This document shows, one piece after another, positions 6,610-46,470 of a DNA stretch of 64,000 bases. The number at the start of each line of letters is the position of its first letter. Position 1 is the first letter of the stretch. A program made the translations under genes and the position numbers. Below the pieces are notes generated by a model that saw nothing but the letters and a program-made list of their open reading frames with translations, did no database searches and was not told the DNA's origin. Source of the stretch: Sphaerisporangium fuscum (GTDB taxonomy: Bacteria > Actinomycetota > Actinomycetes > Streptosporangiales > Streptosporangiaceae); assembly GCF_018531465.1 (NCBI RefSeq), contig NZ_JAHDTF010000002.1:248001-312000 (forward strand), written 5' to 3'.

Positions 6610-8076
6610 ATGTCCTACGCCATGAACTCCTCCGCGCATGACCAACGATGGGACGCACGACTGTGGGGAGCCCTGACCGTGCTCTGCGCCGTCGTGTTCC
6701 TCGACGCCCTTGATGTCTCGATGGTCGGGGTCGCCCTGCCGTCCATCCAGTCCAGCCTCGGCCTGTCGACCTCCTCCCTTCAGTGGGTCGTCAGCGGCTA
6801 CGTGCTCGGCTACGGCGGGCTGCTGCTGCTCGGCGGCCGGACGGCCGACCTTCTCGGCCGCCGGCGGGTCTTCCTCACCGCCCTGGTCGTCTTCGCCGTG
6901 GCCTCGCTGCTCGGTGGCGTGGTGAACGACGGCACCCTGCTCATCGCCGCCCGGTTCATCAAGGGCATCAGCGCCGCCTTCACCGCCCCCGCCGCGCTGT
7001 CCATCATCACCACCACCTTCGCCGAGGGGCCGGCCCGTAACCGGGCGCTCAGCATCTTCACCGCCTGTGGCGCCAGCGGCTTCTCGCTCGGCCTCGTGCT
7101 GTCGGGCTTCCTCACCGAGCTCGGCTGGCGGTACACCTTCCTGATGCCGGTGCCGGTCGCGATCATCGCGCTGGTGGCGGGCCTGAAGCTGCTTCCGCGC
7201 CACTCCGGCGAGGAGCGCGCCACCGGCGGCTACGACCTCATCGGCGCCGCCACCATCACCGGCTCGATGCTGCTGTTCGTCTTCGCCGTGGTCCAGGCCC
7301 CCGAGGCCGGGTGGGCTTCGCTTCGCACGCTGGGCAGCATCGGGGGCGCCATCGCCCTGTTCGCCCTGTTCATCGTCGCCGAGCTGCGCGTCAAGCACCC
7401 GCTCGTGCGCCTGTCCATCCTGCGCTCCGGGCACCTCGTCCGGGCCAACCTCGGACTTGTGATCCTGTTCGGCTCCTACGTCGGGTTCCAGTTCGTCGGG
7501 ATGCAGTACTTCCAGAACCTCCTGCACTGGTCGGCCCTGCAGACCGCCCTGGCCTTCCTCCCCGCGGGCCTGCTCGTGGCCGTCACCTCGACGAAGATGG
7601 GTGACCTCGCCGACCGGTTCGGCACCACCCGCCTGATCACGATCGGCTCGTTCGCGCTGGCCGCCGGGTACGCCGTGTTCCTGAACGTCAGCGAGCACCC
7701 CAGCCTCACCACCATGATCATCCCGGGCATGGTGCTGCTGGGCATCGCGTTCGCGCTGTCGTTCCCCTCGCTGAACATCCAGGCCACCAGCGGTGTCGCC
7801 GACGACGAGCAGGGGCTGGCCTCAGGCCTGCTGAACACCTCCGGGCAGGTCGGCGGCGCGCTGGTCCTGGCGATCGTCACCGCCGTGGCGACCTCCCACG
7901 GGGGCACGGTCACCATCGGCACCATCCGGTCCTCCTTCGCCCTGTGCGCGGCGATCGCCCTGCTGGGCCTCGCCATCGCCGTCGTCGGCCTCGTCCGGGG
8001 CCGCGCGACCGTCCAGACCCCGGCGCTCGCCGAGGAGGCGGGCGGGGACGACGTGAAGGTCCTCGAGGCGATCTGA
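6610..8076 (+). CDS. MFS multidrug efflux transporter (DHA2-type, 14 TM)
   Basis: A 488-residue inner-membrane proton antiporter of the DHA2 class (EmrB/QacA-like). The first helix carries the LDALDVSMVGVALPSIQ motif. Loop 2-3 has GRTADLLGRRRVF (motif A), and about 14 hydrophobic segments follow, with a large central loop around residue 195. The start is either ATG 6610 or ATG 6622; neither has a good ribosome-binding site, and the -10-like boxes nearby do not decide. It is divergent from a MarR repressor and ends at a bidirectional terminator. Substrates are probably amphipathic drugs or an endogenous metabolite; the sequence does not say which. Confidence 0.9.
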   Translation: MSYAMNSSAHDQRWDARLWGALTVLCAVVFLDALDVSMVGVALPSIQSSLGLSTSSLQWVVSGYVLGYGGLLLLGGRTADLLGRRRVFLTALVVFAVASLLGGVVNDGTLLIAARFIKGISAAFTAPAALSIITTTFAEGPARNRALSIFTACGASGFSLGLVLSGFLTELGWRYTFLMPVPVAIIALVAGLKLLPRHSGEERATGGYDLIGAATITGSMLLFVFAVVQAPEAGWASLRTLGSIGGAIALFALFIVAELRVKHPLVRLSILRSGHLVRANLGLVILFGSYVGFQFVGMQYFQNLLHWSALQTALAFLPAGLLVAVTSTKMGDLADRFGTTRLITIGSFALAAGYAVFLNVSEHPSLTTMIIPGMVLLGIAFALSFPSLNIQATSGVADDEQGLASGLLNTSGQVGGALVLAIVTAVATSHGGTVTIGTIRSSFALCAAIALLGLAIAVVGLVRGRATVQTPALAEEAGGDDVKVLEAI

Positions 8077-40421: not shown

Positions 40422-41141
40422 TCAGACCCTGGCGCCGTCGCGCCGGTAGCGGACGACGACGGCCGCGCCCAGCGCGAGCGTGTACAGCCCCAGGACGAGG
40501 GCCGCCTGCCCGAAGCGCGCACCGCCGACGGCCGCGGCGTGGGCCACCTCCGCCAGCCAGTAGCTCGGCAGCACCCGGGCGACGGTCGCCAGAACCCCCG
40601 GGAAGAGGCTCACCGGGATGAACAGCCCACCGACGAAGCTGAGCACGAGCGTGACGCCCCCGTGGAAGACCTGCACGTTCTGCGGCGTGAGGACCTGACC
40701 GAGCAGCAGACCGAGCAGGGCGAACGGCACCGAGCCCGCCCAGACCCCGAGCACCGCCGCCCACCAGCCGCCCGAAGACAGGTGCACACCGGACAGCGCC
40801 CCCGCGAGCGCCACGCCCACCACGGGCGGAAAGGCGACGAGCAGGGCCACCGTCCCCTTCGCCGCCAGGTACCCGGCGCCGGTGAGCGGGGTCAGGCGCA
40901 ACTGCCGCTGCCAGCCCATCCCGCGCTCCACGGCCGTACGGGCGCCGGTGTCCAGCGCGGCCTTGAACGCCCCGAAGGCGGCCAGGCTGCCCATGACGTA
41001 CGAGGCGGGGACCCCCTCGCGGCCGTGGTACAGGTCGGCCTGCAACAGGAAGAGGCCGACGGGCAGGGCGACGGCGAAGAGCAGGAACTTCGGGTCGCGG
41101 AGCATCCGCCTGATCTCGAACATCAGGTATCCGGTCTTCAT
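40422..41141 (-). CDS. ABC-2 type exporter permease
   Basis: A 239-residue membrane protein with six hydrophobic segments, beginning with a cytoplasmic EIRRMLRDPKFLLFAVALPV segment typical of ABC-2 permeases. It overlaps the ATPase gene by four bases (ATGA). With the downstream kinase and regulator it forms a four-gene membrane-stress or drug-export unit. No substrate can be inferred. Confidence 0.88.
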   Translation of the reverse strand: MKTGYLMFEIRRMLRDPKFLLFAVALPVGLFLLQADLYHGREGVPASYVMGSLAAFGAFKAALDTGARTAVERGMGWQRQLRLTPLTGAGYLAAKGTVALLVAFPPVVGVALAGALSGVHLSSGGWWAAVLGVWAGSVPFALLGLLLGQVLTPQNVQVFHGGVTLVLSFVGGLFIPVSLFPGVLATVARVLPSYWLAEVAHAAAVGGARFGQAALVLGLYTLALGAAVVVRYRRDGARV

Positions 41142-42037
41142 CGCGCCGCCTCCGCCGTCAGTCGCAGGAAGGCCTCTTCCAGGCCCGGCGCGACCACCTC
41201 GATGTCACGTGCCGCGGGGAAGACGGTCAGAAGTTCCCGTACGACGGCGTCGGCGTCCGAGCACTGCAGTTCGGCCCGATCGCCGCGCAGCCGCGCCTCG
41301 GCCACCCCCGGCAGCCGCCGTAGTTCCTCCAGGCCGGCGCCCGGGACGCGGGCGCGGACCGTACGGCCGGTGGCCTGGGCCATGACCTCGGCCACCGGGC
41401 CGTCCGCCACGATCCTCCCGCCGCTCATCAGCACGACCCGGTCGGCGTACGCCTCGGCCTCCTCCAGATAGTGGGTGGCGAACAGGACGGTACGGCCGGT
41501 GGTGGTGAAGGCGTGCATCGAGCGCCAGAAGTCGCGGCGACTGCCCACGTCCATCGCCGAGGTCGGCTCGTCGAGCACCAGCAGGTCCGGGTCGGACGCC
41601 AGCGCCAGCGCGAACCGGACCCGCTGCTTCTCGCCGCCGGACAGCCGGGCCGAGCGGCGGGAGGCGAGACCCTCCACACCGGCCCGCCGCAGCGCCTCCT
41701 CCACGGGCAGGGACGTGCGGTGCAGGGACGCGATCAACGCCACCGTCTCACGGACGGTGACGTCGTCCAGCAGCGCCGCCTCCTGCAGCATCACCCCGAC
41801 CAGGCCCTCGCGCACGGCCTGCCCGGGCGGGAGGCCGAACAGCGTGATCTCCCCCGCGCCGGGGCGGGTCAGGCCGAGGAGCATGTCCACTGTGGTGGAC
41901 TTGCCGGCGCCGTTCGGGCCGAGCAGCGCGACCACCTCGCCGCGTCCGATCACCAGGTCGACCCCGTCGACGGCGCGGACCTCGCCGTACTGCTTGCGCA
42001 GGCCGCTCGCGGCCACCGCATGCTGTGTCGTCTTCAT
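41138..42037 (-). CDS. ABC exporter ATP-binding protein
   Basis: A 299-residue ATPase of the drug/antibiotic exporter class. It has GPNGAGKST (Walker A, about 38-46), LSGGEKQRV (signature) and LLVLDEPTSAMD (Walker B), with a switch His in LFATHYLEEAEAYAD. The C-terminal about 70 residues are an accessory domain (VRARVPGAGLEELRRLPGV...). It pairs with the ABC-2 permease whose gene overlaps it. First gene of the four-gene unit running left to the response regulator. Confidence 0.9.
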   Translation of the reverse strand: MKTTQHAVAASGLRKQYGEVRAVDGVDLVIGRGEVVALLGPNGAGKSTTVDMLLGLTRPGAGEITLFGLPPGQAVREGLVGVMLQEAALLDDVTVRETVALIASLHRTSLPVEEALRRAGVEGLASRRSARLSGGEKQRVRFALALASDPDLLVLDEPTSAMDVGSRRDFWRSMHAFTTTGRTVLFATHYLEEAEAYADRVVLMSGGRIVADGPVAEVMAQATGRTVRARVPGAGLEELRRLPGVAEARLRGDRAELQCSDADAVVRELLTVFPAARDIEVVAPGLEEAFLRLTAEAAR

Positions 42038-42121
42038 GGGACCAGCATTCGCCCGCCGCGCCGGGCGCTCCCCCGCCGTTTGTCACGACCCGTCCACGAC
42101 AGATGTCACGGGTCGGCCCGG

Positions 42122-43123
42122 CTAGGTGGACTCGCGGATCACGAGCTCGTTGGGCATGATCACCGGCTCCTTCGGGCCGCCTTCGAACAGGCCGAGCAGC
42201 AGCCGCACCGTCGCGACGGCCTGGTCGGCCATGGGGCTGCGGATGGTGGTCAGCGGCGGCGCGGTGTAGCAGGCGGCCTCGATGTCGTCGAAGCCGACCA
42301 CCGCCACGTCGTCCGGCACCCGCCGCCCCGCCTCCCGCAGGGTGCGCAGCGCGCCGATGGCCATCAGGTCGTTGGCGGCGAACACCGCGTCCAGCTCGGG
42401 GTCGTCCTCCAGCAGCTGGCGCATGGCCTCGGCCCCCGAGATCCGGGTGAAGTCGCCGATGGCCACGATGGAGCGGCGGCCGGTGTCGCGGAGCGTCTCG
42501 CGGTAGCCGGTGAGCCGGTCCTGCGAGGCGATCATGTCGAGCGGCCCCGAGATGGTCGCGATGCGCCGCCTCCCCTGTTCCAGCAGGTAGCGCACGGCCT
42601 TCGCGGCGCCGCCGACGTTGTCGTTCTCGGCGTACGGCACGGGGGCCGGCCCGGACTCGGCGGGCTTGCCGTTGGACACCAGGGGGATGCCCATTCGTGC
42701 CAGCGCGGCGGGCAGCGGATCGGAGCCGTGCAGCGACACCAGCATGACCCCGTCCACGTGCCCGGCCGCGACGTACTGCTCGACCCGCTGCCGGCTCTCG
42801 TCGGACCCGGCGAGCATGAGGACCACGCGCTTGCCCGCCGCCTCCAGCTCGCGGCTCGCGGCGCGGACCACCGCGGAGAACATCGGGTCGTCGGAGGTGA
42901 GCCCCTTGGGCGGGTCGGAGACGACCACCGCCACCGCGTTGGTGCGGCGGGTGACAAGGTTGCGGGCCGCGGCGTTGGGGACGTATCCCAGCTCGCGCAC
43001 GGCCTGCAGCACCACCTCGCGGATCCCGGGCGCGACGGTGGTCTCACCGTTGATCACGCGGGAGACGCTCGACTTCGACACCCCCGCCCGGGCGGCGACC
43101 GCCTCCAACGTGGGTCGTTTCAT
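42122..43123 (-). CDS. LacI-family repressor, CebR-like
   Basis: A 333-residue repressor. The LacI helix-turn-helix is at residues 4-50 (TLEAVAARAGVSKSSVSRVINGETTV, then a hinge NAAARNLVTRRT). The periplasmic-binding-like ligand domain follows, with an AVFAANDLMAIGALR segment near 245 and VVGFDDIEAACYTAPPLTT near 283. It resembles CebR, which represses cellobiose uptake and beta-glucosidase genes and releases DNA on binding cellobiose. Its ATG overlaps the stop of the chimeric remnant upstream (ATGA), so it is read from the same message. Four CebR-type boxes lie 0.9-1.2 kb upstream. Confidence 0.85.
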   Translation of the reverse strand: MKRPTLEAVAARAGVSKSSVSRVINGETTVAPGIREVVLQAVRELGYVPNAAARNLVTRRTNAVAVVVSDPPKGLTSDDPMFSAVVRAASRELEAAGKRVVLMLAGSDESRQRVEQYVAAGHVDGVMLVSLHGSDPLPAALARMGIPLVSNGKPAESGPAPVPYAENDNVGGAAKAVRYLLEQGRRRIATISGPLDMIASQDRLTGYRETLRDTGRRSIVAIGDFTRISGAEAMRQLLEDDPELDAVFAANDLMAIGALRTLREAGRRVPDDVAVVGFDDIEAACYTAPPLTTIRSPMADQAVATVRLLLGLFEGGPKEPVIMPNELVIREST

Positions 43124-43542
43124 ACCAGTCCGTTCCGTTCGATGACGCCGCGGTACCACAGCGCGCTGTTCTTGGGCAGCCGCCGTTGGGTGGCGTAATC
43201 GACGTGCACGATGCCGAACCTCTTGCGGTACCCCTCAGCCCACTCGAAATTGTCCAGAAGCGACCATACGAGATAGCCGCGCAGGTCCGCGCCGGCCGCG
43301 ATCGCCGCGTGCGCCGCGCGCAGGTGGGCGTCGAGGTAGGCGACGCGTTCGGCGTCGTGCACGCGACCGTCGGCGACGACGTCGTCGAACGCGGCGCCGT
43401 TCTCGGTGACCAGCAGTCCGACCTGCGGGTAGTCGCGCGACAGCCGCACCAGGAGCCGGGTCAGCCCGTCGGGCGCGATGGGCCGGCCCATCGCCGTGGT
43501 GGGCTCGCCGGGGTCGACGAACGCGACGCCCTCGCCGCCCGT
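43120..43542 (-). pseudogene. C-terminal remnant of a GH1 beta-glucosidase
   Basis: About 140 residues matching the last third of a family 1 glucosidase: the catalytic nucleophile motif LLVTENGAAF, then SLLDNFEWAEGYRKRFGIVHVDY and the usual end RLPKNSALWYRGVIERNG. The N-terminal two thirds, including the NEP acid/base motif, are missing. The reading frame continues without interruption from the permease fragment upstream (junction near 43542, within a GGEGV segment). It cannot be catalytically competent. The stop overlaps the repressor start. Confidence 0.85.
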
Positions 43543-43815
43543 GGCCGCCATGAAGGTCAGCATGCCGAGCACGGCGGCGGCGGGCCGGGCGACGGGCAGG
43601 ACCACGTGCCAGTACAGCCCCCAGGTGGTGCAGCCGTCCACCCGGCCGGCCTCCAGCAGTTCGGTGGGCAGCGCCCGCGAGAGGAACCGGGTCATGAAGA
43701 ACACGCCGAACGCGTTGACCAGCGCGGGCACGACCAGGGCGTACAGGGTGCCGGTCCACTCCGGCTTCACCATCAGCAGGTACAGCGGGATGATCCCGAG
43801 CTGGGTGGGCACCAC
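43543..43815 (-). pseudogene. Fragment of a sugar ABC transporter permease (MalG/CebG-type)
   Basis: About 90 residues match the middle of a MalG-type permease: PTQLGIIPLYLLM, NAFGVFFMTRFLSRALPTELLEAGRVDGCTTWGLYWHVVLP (the EAA-like loop), and PAAAVLGMLTFMAA. The N-terminal half and the last about 60 residues are absent. It begins just after the truncated lipoprotein piece and is fused in frame to the glucosidase tail. It cannot form a working permease. Confidence 0.85.
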
Positions 43816-43985
43816 AGGGGCGCGAAGTGGAAGTCACTGAACAGCGCCACCGTGACTTTGATCTTCTCGGCCGGTTCGCCTGAGGCGCCCGGCGTGCTCG
43901 CGCCGCCGCCACCGCAGGCGGCCGCGCTCATCGCCAGGACGGCCGTCAGCACCGGGGCGACGAGCCGGGGGCGGAGCTTGCCCAT
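43816..43985 (-). pseudogene. N-terminal remnant of a sugar ABC solute-binding lipoprotein
   Basis: A strong ribosome-binding site (AAGGAGG) and ATG 43985 start a lipoprotein signal peptide (VLTAVLAMSAAAC), then a Gly/Ser linker and the first strand of a CebE-like binding protein (KIKVTVALFSDFHFAPL). After about 57 residues the sequence jumps to the permease piece; the lipoprotein frame then runs out of family sequence and stops at 43773. About 370 residues of binding protein and the entire first permease are missing. A CebR-type box lies 33 bp upstream. Confidence 0.85.
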
Positions 43986-44017
43986 AGAACCCTCCTTGGG
44001 CTCTTAATGATCATGTG

Positions 44018-44029
44018 GGGAGCGCTCCC
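44018..44029. promoter_or_regulatory. CebR-type box A
   Basis: GGGAGCGCTCCC, perfect 12-bp palindrome matching the core of the CebR operator TGGGAGCGCTCCCA known in Streptomyces. It lies 33 bp upstream of the remnant lipoprotein start. Confidence 0.8.
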
Positions 44030-44109
44030 TGAACGAGGTTCGTGCCGTCGCCGCATCGACGTCAAGGGGGCCGGCGATAACGATGCCCGTTACCTGAAGG
44101 TGAATTTCC

Positions 44110-44121
44110 GGGAACGCTCCC
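44110..44121. promoter_or_regulatory. CebR-type box B
   Basis: GGGAACGCTCCC, one mismatch to the palindrome core. Confidence 0.65.
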
Positions 44122-44172
44122 TGGCAGTACATGAGTCTCAACCTGCTCAATCACTTCGCAGGTCGAGATTCT

Positions 44173-44184
44173 GGGAGCGCTCTC
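44173..44184. promoter_or_regulatory. CebR-type box C
   Basis: GGGAGCGCTCTC preceded by T; one mismatch in the right arm. Confidence 0.65.
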
Positions 44185-44284
44185 TCAATGTTGCCGAATG
44201 GGGGCGGGAGGATGTCGGGGAGGTTTCCAACGCGTTGATTAGGGCCTTGACAGACCTTTCGGACAGGGGTGACGCTCAGCTTCC

Positions 44285-44296
44285 GGGAGCGCTCCC
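44285..44296. promoter_or_regulatory. CebR-type box D
   Basis: GGGAGCGCTCCC, perfect palindrome core, 29 bp before the GTG start of the glucanase gene. It would block that gene's transcription or its start region. Confidence 0.8.
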
Positions 44297-44325
44297 CGAA
44301 CACCCCCGCCATCCGAGGAGCCGTT

Positions 44326-46470
44326 GTGAGTCCATCTCGCGGCCCCGGCCCCCGCCGCCTGGGCCTGCTCGTCACCATCGTGATCACCTTGATGGTTTCC
44401 TGTCTCAACGCCCTTCCCGCCCGAGCCGCCGACGCGCTGCTCTCCCAGGGCAAGCCCGTCACCGCGTCCTCCTCCGAGAACGCCGCCCTCGCCCCCGCCA
44501 ACGTCGCCGACGGCGACACGGGCACCCGCTGGGCCAGCGCGTTCAGCGACCCCCAGTGGATCCAGATCGACCTCGGCGCCACCGCGACCGTCTCCCAGGT
44601 CGTACTGCGCTGGGAGGCCGCCTACGCCAAGGCCTTCCAGATCCAGGTCTCCGGCGACGGCGGCGACTGGACCCCCATCTACTCCACCACCACCGGCACC
44701 GGCGGCACCCAGACGCTCGACGTCTCCGGCACCGGCCGGTACGTGCGCATGTACGGCACCCAGCGGGCCACCGCCTACGGCTACTCGTTGTGGGAGTTCC
44801 AGGTGTACGGCAGCGCCGGCTCCGGCTCCGGCTGCGGGACCACCAACGCCGCCCAGGGCCGTCCGGCCACCGCCTCCTCCGCCGAGAACGCGGCGACGGG
44901 CGCGGAGAAGGCCGTCGACGGCGACCCCGCCACCCGCTGGTCCAGCCAGTTCGCCGACCCCTCCTGGCTGCGCGTGGACCTCGGCGCGCCCCGGTCGATC
45001 TGCGGGGTGACCCTCAACTGGGAGGCCGCCTACGCCACCGCGTTCCAGATCCAGGTGTCGGACAACGGCGGCGACTGGACCCCCATCTACTCCACGACCA
45101 CCGGCACCGGCGGCACCCAGCGGCTGACCGTCTCCGGGACCGGCCGGTACGTGCGCGTGTACGGCACCGCCCGGGCCACCGCCTACGGCTACTCCCTCTG
45201 GGAGTTCGCCGTGCAGGTCACCGGCTCGGGCCCCGGCCCGGATCCGGGCGGCGACAAGCTGCTGTCGTACAACAAGCCCGCCGTGGCCTCCAGCTCCCAG
45301 AGCGACGCGAACTGCTGGGAGTGCACCCCCGCCAGGGCCTTCGACCTGGACCCGGCCTCCCGATGGGCGACCAGCTCCACCACCGGCTGGGTCGACCCTG
45401 GCTGGATCTACGTCGACCTCGGCGCCACCGCGCAGATCAGCAAGGTCGTCCTCCAGTGGGACCCGGCCTACGCCAAGGCCTTCCAGATCCAGGTCTCCGA
45501 CAACGCCTCCACCTGGACGCCGATCTACTCCACCACCACGGGGACCGGGTTCAAGCAGGTCCTGACGGTGAGCGGCACCGGCCGCTACGTGCGGATGTAC
45601 GGCACGCAGCGCGCCACCGCCTACGGCTACTCTCTGTGGGAGTTCCAGGTGTACGGCACCGGCGGCAACCCGACGCCGCCCCCGCCGCTCCCGCCCGACC
45701 CCGCCGACCCGCCCAAACTCGTGTGGAGCGACGAGTTCAACGGCGCCGCCGGGACCAAGCCCGACGCCGCCAAGTGGACCGCCGACCCGGGCACCGGCCC
45801 GAACGCCGAACTGGAGTACTACACCAACAACGACAACGCCGCCATGGACGGCGCGGGCAACCTGGTGCTGGAGGCCCGCAAGCAGGCCACCCCCGGCTCC
45901 GCCTGCCCCACCGACCCGCTGACCGGCAGCACCGCCTGCCAGTACACCTCGGCGCGGATCAACACCGGCAACAAGTTCCACTTCACCTATGGCCGTGTCG
46001 AGGCCCGGATCAAGGTGCCCAAGGGCGCCGGGTTCTGGCCGGCGTTCTGGATGATGGGCGCCGACTTCCTCACCGGCCGCCCGTGGCCGTACAACGGTGA
46101 GGTCGACATCATGGAGATCCTGGGCAAGGACGTGAAGACGGCCTACTCCACGATCCACGCGCCCGCCTACAACGGCGGCGGCGGGATCGGCTCGCCGTAC
46201 ACGCTGCCCGGCGGCGCCGACTTCTCCGACGACTTCCACGTCTGGGCCGCCAACTGGAACAGCAAGGGCATCACCTTCACCCTGGACGGCCGGACCGTCT
46301 TCACCGCCGACAAGGCGCAGGTCGAGCAGACCCGCGGTCCATGGATCTACGACCACCCCTTCTACATCATCCTCAACCTCGCCGTCGGCGGCGACTGGCC
46401 CGGACCGCCGAACGCCGCCACCCCGTTCCCGTCCCGGATGCTCGTCGACTACGTCCGCGTCTACCAGTGA
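44326..46470 (+). CDS. Secreted GH16 beta-glucanase with three discoidin (F5/8 type C) domains
   Basis: A 714-residue exported enzyme. A signal peptide (about 1-34) is followed by three F5/8 type C/CBM32-like domains (about 35-165, 170-300, 312-445). Each has an AFQIQVSxx...TWTPIYSTTTGTG block and an RYVRMYGTQRATAYGYSLWEFQV-like end; the repeats are nearly identical. A Pro linker leads to a GH16 domain (about 465-714) with the catalytic EVDIMEILG motif (nucleophile and acid/base Glu). GH16 enzymes cleave beta-1,3 or mixed beta-glucans, agar or carrageenan; beta-glucan fits CebR control. GTG 44326 has GAGGAG 5 nt upstream, and box D lies just before it. Confidence 0.93.
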   Translation: MSPSRGPGPRRLGLLVTIVITLMVSCLNALPARAADALLSQGKPVTASSSENAALAPANVADGDTGTRWASAFSDPQWIQIDLGATATVSQVVLRWEAAYAKAFQIQVSGDGGDWTPIYSTTTGTGGTQTLDVSGTGRYVRMYGTQRATAYGYSLWEFQVYGSAGSGSGCGTTNAAQGRPATASSAENAATGAEKAVDGDPATRWSSQFADPSWLRVDLGAPRSICGVTLNWEAAYATAFQIQVSDNGGDWTPIYSTTTGTGGTQRLTVSGTGRYVRVYGTARATAYGYSLWEFAVQVTGSGPGPDPGGDKLLSYNKPAVASSSQSDANCWECTPARAFDLDPASRWATSSTTGWVDPGWIYVDLGATAQISKVVLQWDPAYAKAFQIQVSDNASTWTPIYSTTTGTGFKQVLTVSGTGRYVRMYGTQRATAYGYSLWEFQVYGTGGNPTPPPPLPPDPADPPKLVWSDEFNGAAGTKPDAAKWTADPGTGPNAELEYYTNNDNAAMDGAGNLVLEARKQATPGSACPTDPLTGSTACQYTSARINTGNKFHFTYGRVEARIKVPKGAGFWPAFWMMGADFLTGRPWPYNGEVDIMEILGKDVKTAYSTIHAPAYNGGGGIGSPYTLPGGADFSDDFHVWAANWNSKGITFTLDGRTVFTADKAQVEQTRGPWIYDHPFYIILNLAVGGDWPGPPNAATPFPSRMLVDYVRVYQ

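What the first reader, a model, noticed from the sequence alone, without database searches (positions are those of the whole stretch)
43120..43985. A cebEFG-bglC-like operon collapsed to a three-part chimera
In 866 bp, in the order expected for a CebR-controlled operon, lie the first about 57 residues of a solute-binding lipoprotein, about 90 residues from the middle of a MalG-type permease, and the last about 140 residues of a GH1 glucosidase. One deletion removed the rest of the lipoprotein, the first permease and half of the second; the other removed the permease end and two thirds of the glucosidase. The second junction is in frame. The ribosome-binding site, signal peptide and repressor gene remain intact. 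The deletions may be recent, or the locus may be kept for the repressor's own expression, since the repressor start overlaps the chimera's stop.
Basis: partly seen in the sequence, partly recalled or inferred. Interest (0 to 1): 0.75.

Follow-up and report, generated by a model that had tools for sequence, protein, structure and literature searches.

The report
Decayed sugar-uptake operon beside its repressor
A soil actinobacterium appears to have lost most of a sugar-uptake operon through two internal deletions, leaving three gene scraps next to a full-length repressor gene; it looks like ordinary gene loss, not a new fused protein.

Summary
On the minus strand of 43120-43985 lie the first 56 codons of a sugar-binding lipoprotein, 90 codons from the middle of a MalG-type permease and the last ~140 codons of a GH1 glycosidase, followed by a full-length LacI-family repressor whose start overlaps the GH1 stop. 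Intact operons with the same order and the orthologous repressor exist in five genomes of the genus (Sphaerisporangium, inferred). Against intact operons the first junction lacks 2.52-2.62 kb (out of frame), the second 1.21 kb (in frame). The chimera was found in none of 10 genus relatives and none of the 80 best loci from named genomes. The lost segments were found elsewhere in the assembly only as paralogs (long matches at 76% or less). This is operon decay. Four CebR-type operators and a divergent GH16 gene remain, a reason to keep the repressor. That the scraps serve repressor expression is unlikely: the lead frame ends 650 nt before it, and a Shine-Dalgarno-like word of the relatives is changed. 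The repressor has more unique amino-acid changes than its orthologs, so it may be decaying too. No reads were available; an assembly error is unlikely but not excluded.

The parts
43818..43985 (-). first 56 codons of a CebE-like solute-binding lipoprotein (frame runs on out of frame to a stop at 43773)
   Evidence: 60-72% identical over codons 1-56 to lipoprotein starts in seven relatives
43814..43817 (-). first deletion junction; 2.52-2.62 kb missing against seven intact operons
   Evidence: one shared base at the junction
43546..43815 (-). 90 codons from the middle of a MalG-type permease
   Evidence: BPD_transp_1; 86.7-92.2% identical to the permease in eight other-genome loci, 79.8% to the own paralog on C11
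43540..43545 (-). second deletion junction, in frame; 1214 bp missing against six of seven intact operons, 1211 against one
43120..43542 (-). last ~140 codons of a GH1 glycosidase (TENG motif kept, about two thirds of the domain gone)
   Evidence: profile 319-452 of 453
42122..43123 (-). full-length LacI-family repressor, orthologous to the repressor behind the intact operons
   Evidence: clade support 100/98; closest solved chain 5ysz_A, E 1.3e-85
44018..44296 (.). four CebR-type operators (44018-44029, 44110-44121, 44173-44184, 44285-44296)
   Evidence: the only matches to GGGAGCGCTCCC with at most one mismatch in the window; similar arrays in seven relatives
44326..46470 (+). divergent secreted-type protein with three F5/8 type C domains and a GH16 domain, open frame
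   Evidence: a GH16 relative adjoins the operon in three of the nine loci searched

Best explanation
The locus is the remnant of a CebEFG-BglC-like sugar-uptake operon that lost about 3.8 kb through two internal deletions without long repeats at their ends. No complete transporter or glucosidase is left there. The LacI-family repressor and its operators stay, perhaps because the repressor still controls the divergent GH16 enzyme. Paralogous operons elsewhere in the genome can take over uptake and hydrolysis. Shown: the missing stretches relative to intact orthologs, the full-length repressor frame, the operators, the paralogs. Inferred: end joining as the way the deletions arose, continued control of GH16, and redundancy as the reason the loss was tolerated.
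For: Intact operons in the same order with the orthologous repressor in G002, G003, G005, G006 and G008; operon without that repressor in the fetched stretch in G010 and G025. The repressor groups with the five at 100/98. The second deletion has the same size, 1214 bp, against six of seven relatives. The deleted segments of G008 find in the own genome only paralogs: long matches at 67-76%, and short ones (41-94 nt listed) up to 88%. A paralogous operon on contig C11 matches over lipoprotein, both permeases, GH1 and LacI; seven full-length GH1 matches, that one included, exist in the genome. Operators are kept, the GH16 frame is open, and a Ku gene is present (LigD not searched).
Against: The GH1 tail does not group with the syntenic GH1 genes. 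It lacks their four-residue insertion, as do three less related GH1 genes (C11, C22, G013), and holding it in the syntenic clade is weakly rejected (p-AU 0.047, group named after seeing the data); a clade with the C11 pair is not rejected (p-AU 0.28). The GH1 part may have another history, for instance conversion from a paralog. Against 'repressor kept': it has 17 unique amino-acid and 8 unique synonymous changes, the five orthologs 3-10 and 6-14, so it may be under weaker selection or simply on a longer branch. No raw reads.
Confidence: 0.85

Rival explanations
1. Assembly error: the operon is intact in the cell and the assembler dropped two stretches.
For: Draft assembly of 93 contigs with 6.95% estimated contamination; reads not available.
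Against: Repeat collapse needs shared words at the ends. The longest words shared within 20 nt of the ends in five relatives are 4 nt at the first junction and 4-7 nt at the second, within the range of random pairs of windows. The dropped segments were found on no other contig except as paralogs. A split GH1 match on contig C57 proved to be one continuous 407-codon frame with both catalytic motifs, so no second collapse was seen among the GH1 genes.
Confidence: 0.1
2. Real fusion protein: the permease-GH1 frame (231 codons from GTG 43815) is translated and has a function.
For: The second junction is in frame and the frame is open through both parts.
Against: The first junction breaks the frame that has the ribosome-binding site. 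The GH1 part lacks profile positions 1-318. No fusion was seen in 10 genus relatives or in the 80 best loci. An in-frame junction happens by chance once in three.
Confidence: 0.02
3. The remnant is kept as a leader so that the repressor is translated by coupling to the GH1 stop.
For: ATGA at the repressor start here and in five of five relatives.
Against: After the first junction the lead frame ends at 43773, 650 nt before the repressor start; AGGAG or GGGAG upstream of the repressor ATG in five of five relatives is AACGG at the aligned bases here. Constraint on the scraps was not shown: 9 unique amino-acid and 9 unique synonymous changes over 278 codons, against 0-5 and 1-13 in the other seven lineages.
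Confidence: 0.07

Closest known systems
cebEFG-bglC operon with cebR of Streptomyces
   Same: Lipoprotein, two permeases and GH1 with a LacI-family repressor (order in Streptomyces recalled); operator core GGGAGCGCTCCC (CebR consensus TGGGAGCGCTCCCA in PMC5332605, passages seen). The lipoprotein of an intact relative hits 5ixp_A (E 1.7e-98, family-1 solute-binding protein) and the cellobiose-binding chain 8bfy_A (E 4.7e-82)
   Different: Here the transporter and glucosidase genes are reduced to scraps; the repressor lies behind GH1, and a divergent GH16 gene shares the operator region
Intact syntenic operons of the same genus (G002, G003, G005, G006, G008)
   Same: Same order, orthologous repressor, operator array
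   Different: Complete genes; four of the five have a second LacI gene in tandem that the window lacks
LacI-family regulator chain 5ysz_A (CelR of Thermobifida, name recalled)
   Same: Match over residues 2-332, E 1.3e-85
   Different: Inducer and DNA binding of the window's repressor untested

Membership tests
Pseudogenised operon | Intact orthologs at the same place in relatives | tested here: met
Pseudogenised operon | Genes truncated so that no complete product remains | tested here: met
Pseudogenised operon | Relaxed selection on the remnants | tested here: inconclusive
   9 unique amino-acid and 9 synonymous changes on the window lineage, the highest amino-acid count of eight lineages, but counts are small and the window branch may be longer
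Pseudogenised operon | Loss present in the cell, not only in the assembly | not testable with these tools
   no reads
CebR/CelR-type LacI repressor | LacI helix-turn-helix and sugar-binding domain, full length | tested here: met
CebR/CelR-type LacI repressor | TGGGAGCGCTCCCA-type operators at the controlled genes | tested here: met
   12-base core matched with 0-1 mismatch at four sites; the outer T/A of the 14-mer are not all kept
CebR/CelR-type LacI repressor | Release by cellobiose or related sugar | not testable with these tools
   bench assay needed
GH1 glycosidase | Complete barrel with both catalytic glutamates | tested here: not met
   profile 319-452 of 453 only; TENG present, the acid/base half (NEP motif, recalled) gone

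The most novel reading that the evidence does not exclude
The species has turned a sugar-uptake operon into a pure sensor-effector unit: the repressor and operator array survive only to control the secreted GH16 enzyme, while uptake is delegated to a paralogous operon; and the GH1 scrap may carry a tract converted from a paralog.
Probability: 0.2. Interest if true: 0.35.

Novelty: new member of a known kind. Interest (0 to 1): 0.22.

Why it matters
It shows operon decay caught midway, with both breakpoints placed by intact relatives and with regulator and operators outliving the genes they served. It is a tidy case for studying how redundant sugar-uptake operons are lost in actinobacteria. It also warns annotators: the open permease-GH1 frame could be listed as a 231-aa protein.

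Tried and rejected
Second collapse: a split GH1 match on contig C57 looked like another deletion, but it is one continuous frame with both catalytic motifs and a shorter, diverged middle. Other fused copies: 41 alignments reach across residue 91 of the chimera in the 80 loci; all are one-sided, ending by residue 129, or starting at residue 40 or later with at most 14 of 51 matching residues before the junction (one search had given one start at 33). Of the 13 loci of the second kind, 11 were checked and all hold a full-length GH1 gene there. Permease tree: the window row could not be placed. Promoter and terminator consensus scan of 41900-44400: 0 found, 0.1 and 0.7 expected. Selection test: counts too small. 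Orphan LacI in G001 as a parallel case: only the LacI matched in the 14 kb around it; not pursued.

Literature: search listings only for (8 papers; 5 papers); passages of PMC5332605; the search for Sphaerisporangium with LacI and pseudogene gave none. No claim is made that such a decay is absent from print.

Full report
What is there. On the minus strand, an ATG at 43985 with AAGGAGGG upstream opens a frame with a signal-peptide-like start and lipobox that ends at 43773. From 43815 a second frame runs to 43120; its product matches the middle of a binding-protein-dependent permease and the last third of GH1. Its stop overlaps the ATG of a 333-codon LacI-family repressor. The reading frame therefore breaks at the first junction and holds at the second.

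Intact relatives. The window lies in a genome of 10.1 Mb in 93 contigs. One genus relative, G002, has a contig of the same length (150,106) as NZ_JARWAC010000013.1, Sphaerisporangium sp. TRM90804, so the genus is inferred to be Sphaerisporangium. DNA searches with the 866 bases over 60 relatives (eight candidates scored per genome, listing cut) and with 421 of them over the genus gave separate matches for the parts, at the spacing of a full operon, in G002, G003, G005, G006 and G008, with the orthologous repressor behind. G010 and G025 have the operon without that repressor in the fetched stretch. G013 and the own contig C11 carry operons whose repressor is 69% identical. The other four genus relatives (G001, G004, G007, G009) show only less similar permeases (69-81%) and no repressor of this clade among the listed rows (best listed 69% or less).

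Breakpoints. Codon-level matches place the end of lipoprotein codon 56 and the start of the permease scrap 2 nt apart in the window and 2522-2625 nt apart in seven relatives, so 2.52-2.62 kb are missing. The permease scrap and codon 2 of the GH1 scrap are 6 nt apart in the window and 1220 nt apart in six relatives (1217 in the seventh), so 1214 (1211) are missing (arithmetic mine). Base-level alignments show a single shared base at the first junction, and at the second no in-register repeat beyond a few bases. The longest words shared within 20 nt of the ends, 4 nt and 4-7 nt in five relatives, lie within the 3-11 nt of 494 random pairs (most often 5). That fits end joining, and a Ku gene is present, but the mechanism is inferred.

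Is it an assembly error? The lost segments of G008, searched against the own genome, found paralogs only: for the first segment C11 at 76% and C23 at 67-68%; for the second C11 at 73%, C22 at 75%, C92 at 76% and others lower; some short matches reach 79-88%. No long repeat at the junctions could have misled an assembler. Reads are not held, so the question stays open at about one in ten.

Is it a real fusion? In the genus, 10 of 10 relatives match some part of the 421-base query and none matches it through: matches start or end within about 9 bases of the junctions or lie inside one part, except two short weak ones (50 and 66 query bases, E 1.5e-4 and 1.3e-4) that cross the second junction and look like chance (11 genomes, own included, 40 candidates scored each). 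The scan of named genomes found 587 relatives (pattern list cut off) and kept the best 80. Of these 80, 55 have the permease within 3 kb upstream of the GH1 match, 54 at 1140-1305 nt as in an intact operon and one at 2556 nt; the other 25 have no such permease match. None holds both halves in one alignment, and 11 of the 13 loci with a GH1-side alignment leaking into the permease part were checked and hold a full-length GH1. The own genome may be left out of that scan by the tool's own note.

Origin of the parts. The repressor falls with the five syntenic repressors at 100/98. The permease scrap is closest to G008 (92%), but its tree is unresolved. The GH1 scrap is odd: 81% identical to the C11 and G013 genes, 67-74% to the syntenic and operon-only relatives, and without the four-residue insertion of six of those seven (G025 has one residue there). 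Holding it with six syntenic rows costs 17.5 log-likelihood units, p-AU 0.047; holding it with the C11 pair costs 2.1, p-AU 0.28; both groups were named after seeing the data. A DNA identity profile shows no sharp switch within the scrap. Either the window lineage has the old form without the insertion, or the GH1 gene was partly converted from a paralog before or after the deletions. Not settled.

What is kept. Four matches to GGGAGCGCTCCC with at most one mismatch lie between the scraps and the divergent gene and are the only ones in the window; seven relatives have three or four at similar spacing, counted at up to two mismatches, also where no GH16 gene adjoins. The genome holds 15 exact places, two of them here; the reversed control finds none. 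PMC5332605 gives TGGGAGCGCTCCCA as the CebR consensus, upstream of secreted cellulase genes and of cebE (passages). The divergent gene encodes three F5/8 type C domains and a GH16 domain in an open frame; a GH16 relative adjoins the operon in G003, G006 and G008, and not in the other loci searched but for a 31% match at C11. The repressor keeps 46-51 of its first 60 residues against the five orthologs. It is plausible, not shown, that it still controls the GH16 gene.

What is weakened. All five relatives have AGGAG or GGGAG before the repressor ATG, inside the GH1 end; the aligned bases here are AACGG. With the lead frame ending at 43773, coupling from the lipoprotein start is also cut. So the repressor may be made at a lower level, and the scraps hardly serve its translation. 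The count of changes unique to the window lineage in the three scraps (2+3+4 amino-acid, 2+3+4 synonymous over 278 codons) is the highest amino-acid count of eight lineages (others 0-5), but too small to date the deletions; the repressor too has the most unique amino-acid changes (17 against 3-10). That speaks for a longer branch or for relaxed selection on the repressor as well, and is counted against the reading that the repressor is firmly kept.

Verdict. A well-placed example of ordinary operon decay with regulator and operators left over.

Noticed in passing
window 40422-42122: Synteny with the relatives ends at the repressor stop: four of five relatives have a second LacI gene in tandem there, the window has an ABC-2 exporter pair (40422-42037) not found in the nine fetched loci apart from weak ABC ATPase hits in one.
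   Followed up: partly
L154 (G001:C36), about 6671-7720: In a genus relative a LacI of the second type stands alone: no other part of the uptake operon matched in the 14 kb around it, a possible second case of a regulator outliving its operon.
   Followed up: partly
window 43120-43542: The GH1 scrap lacks the loop insertion of the syntenic GH1 genes and resembles the paralog on contig C11; possible gene conversion.
   Followed up: partly
G000:C57:164934-166157 (L058 4935-6158): A GH1 gene of 407 codons with a shorter, diverged middle, directly behind a permease gene; the Pfam match is split in two although the frame is continuous.
   Followed up: partly
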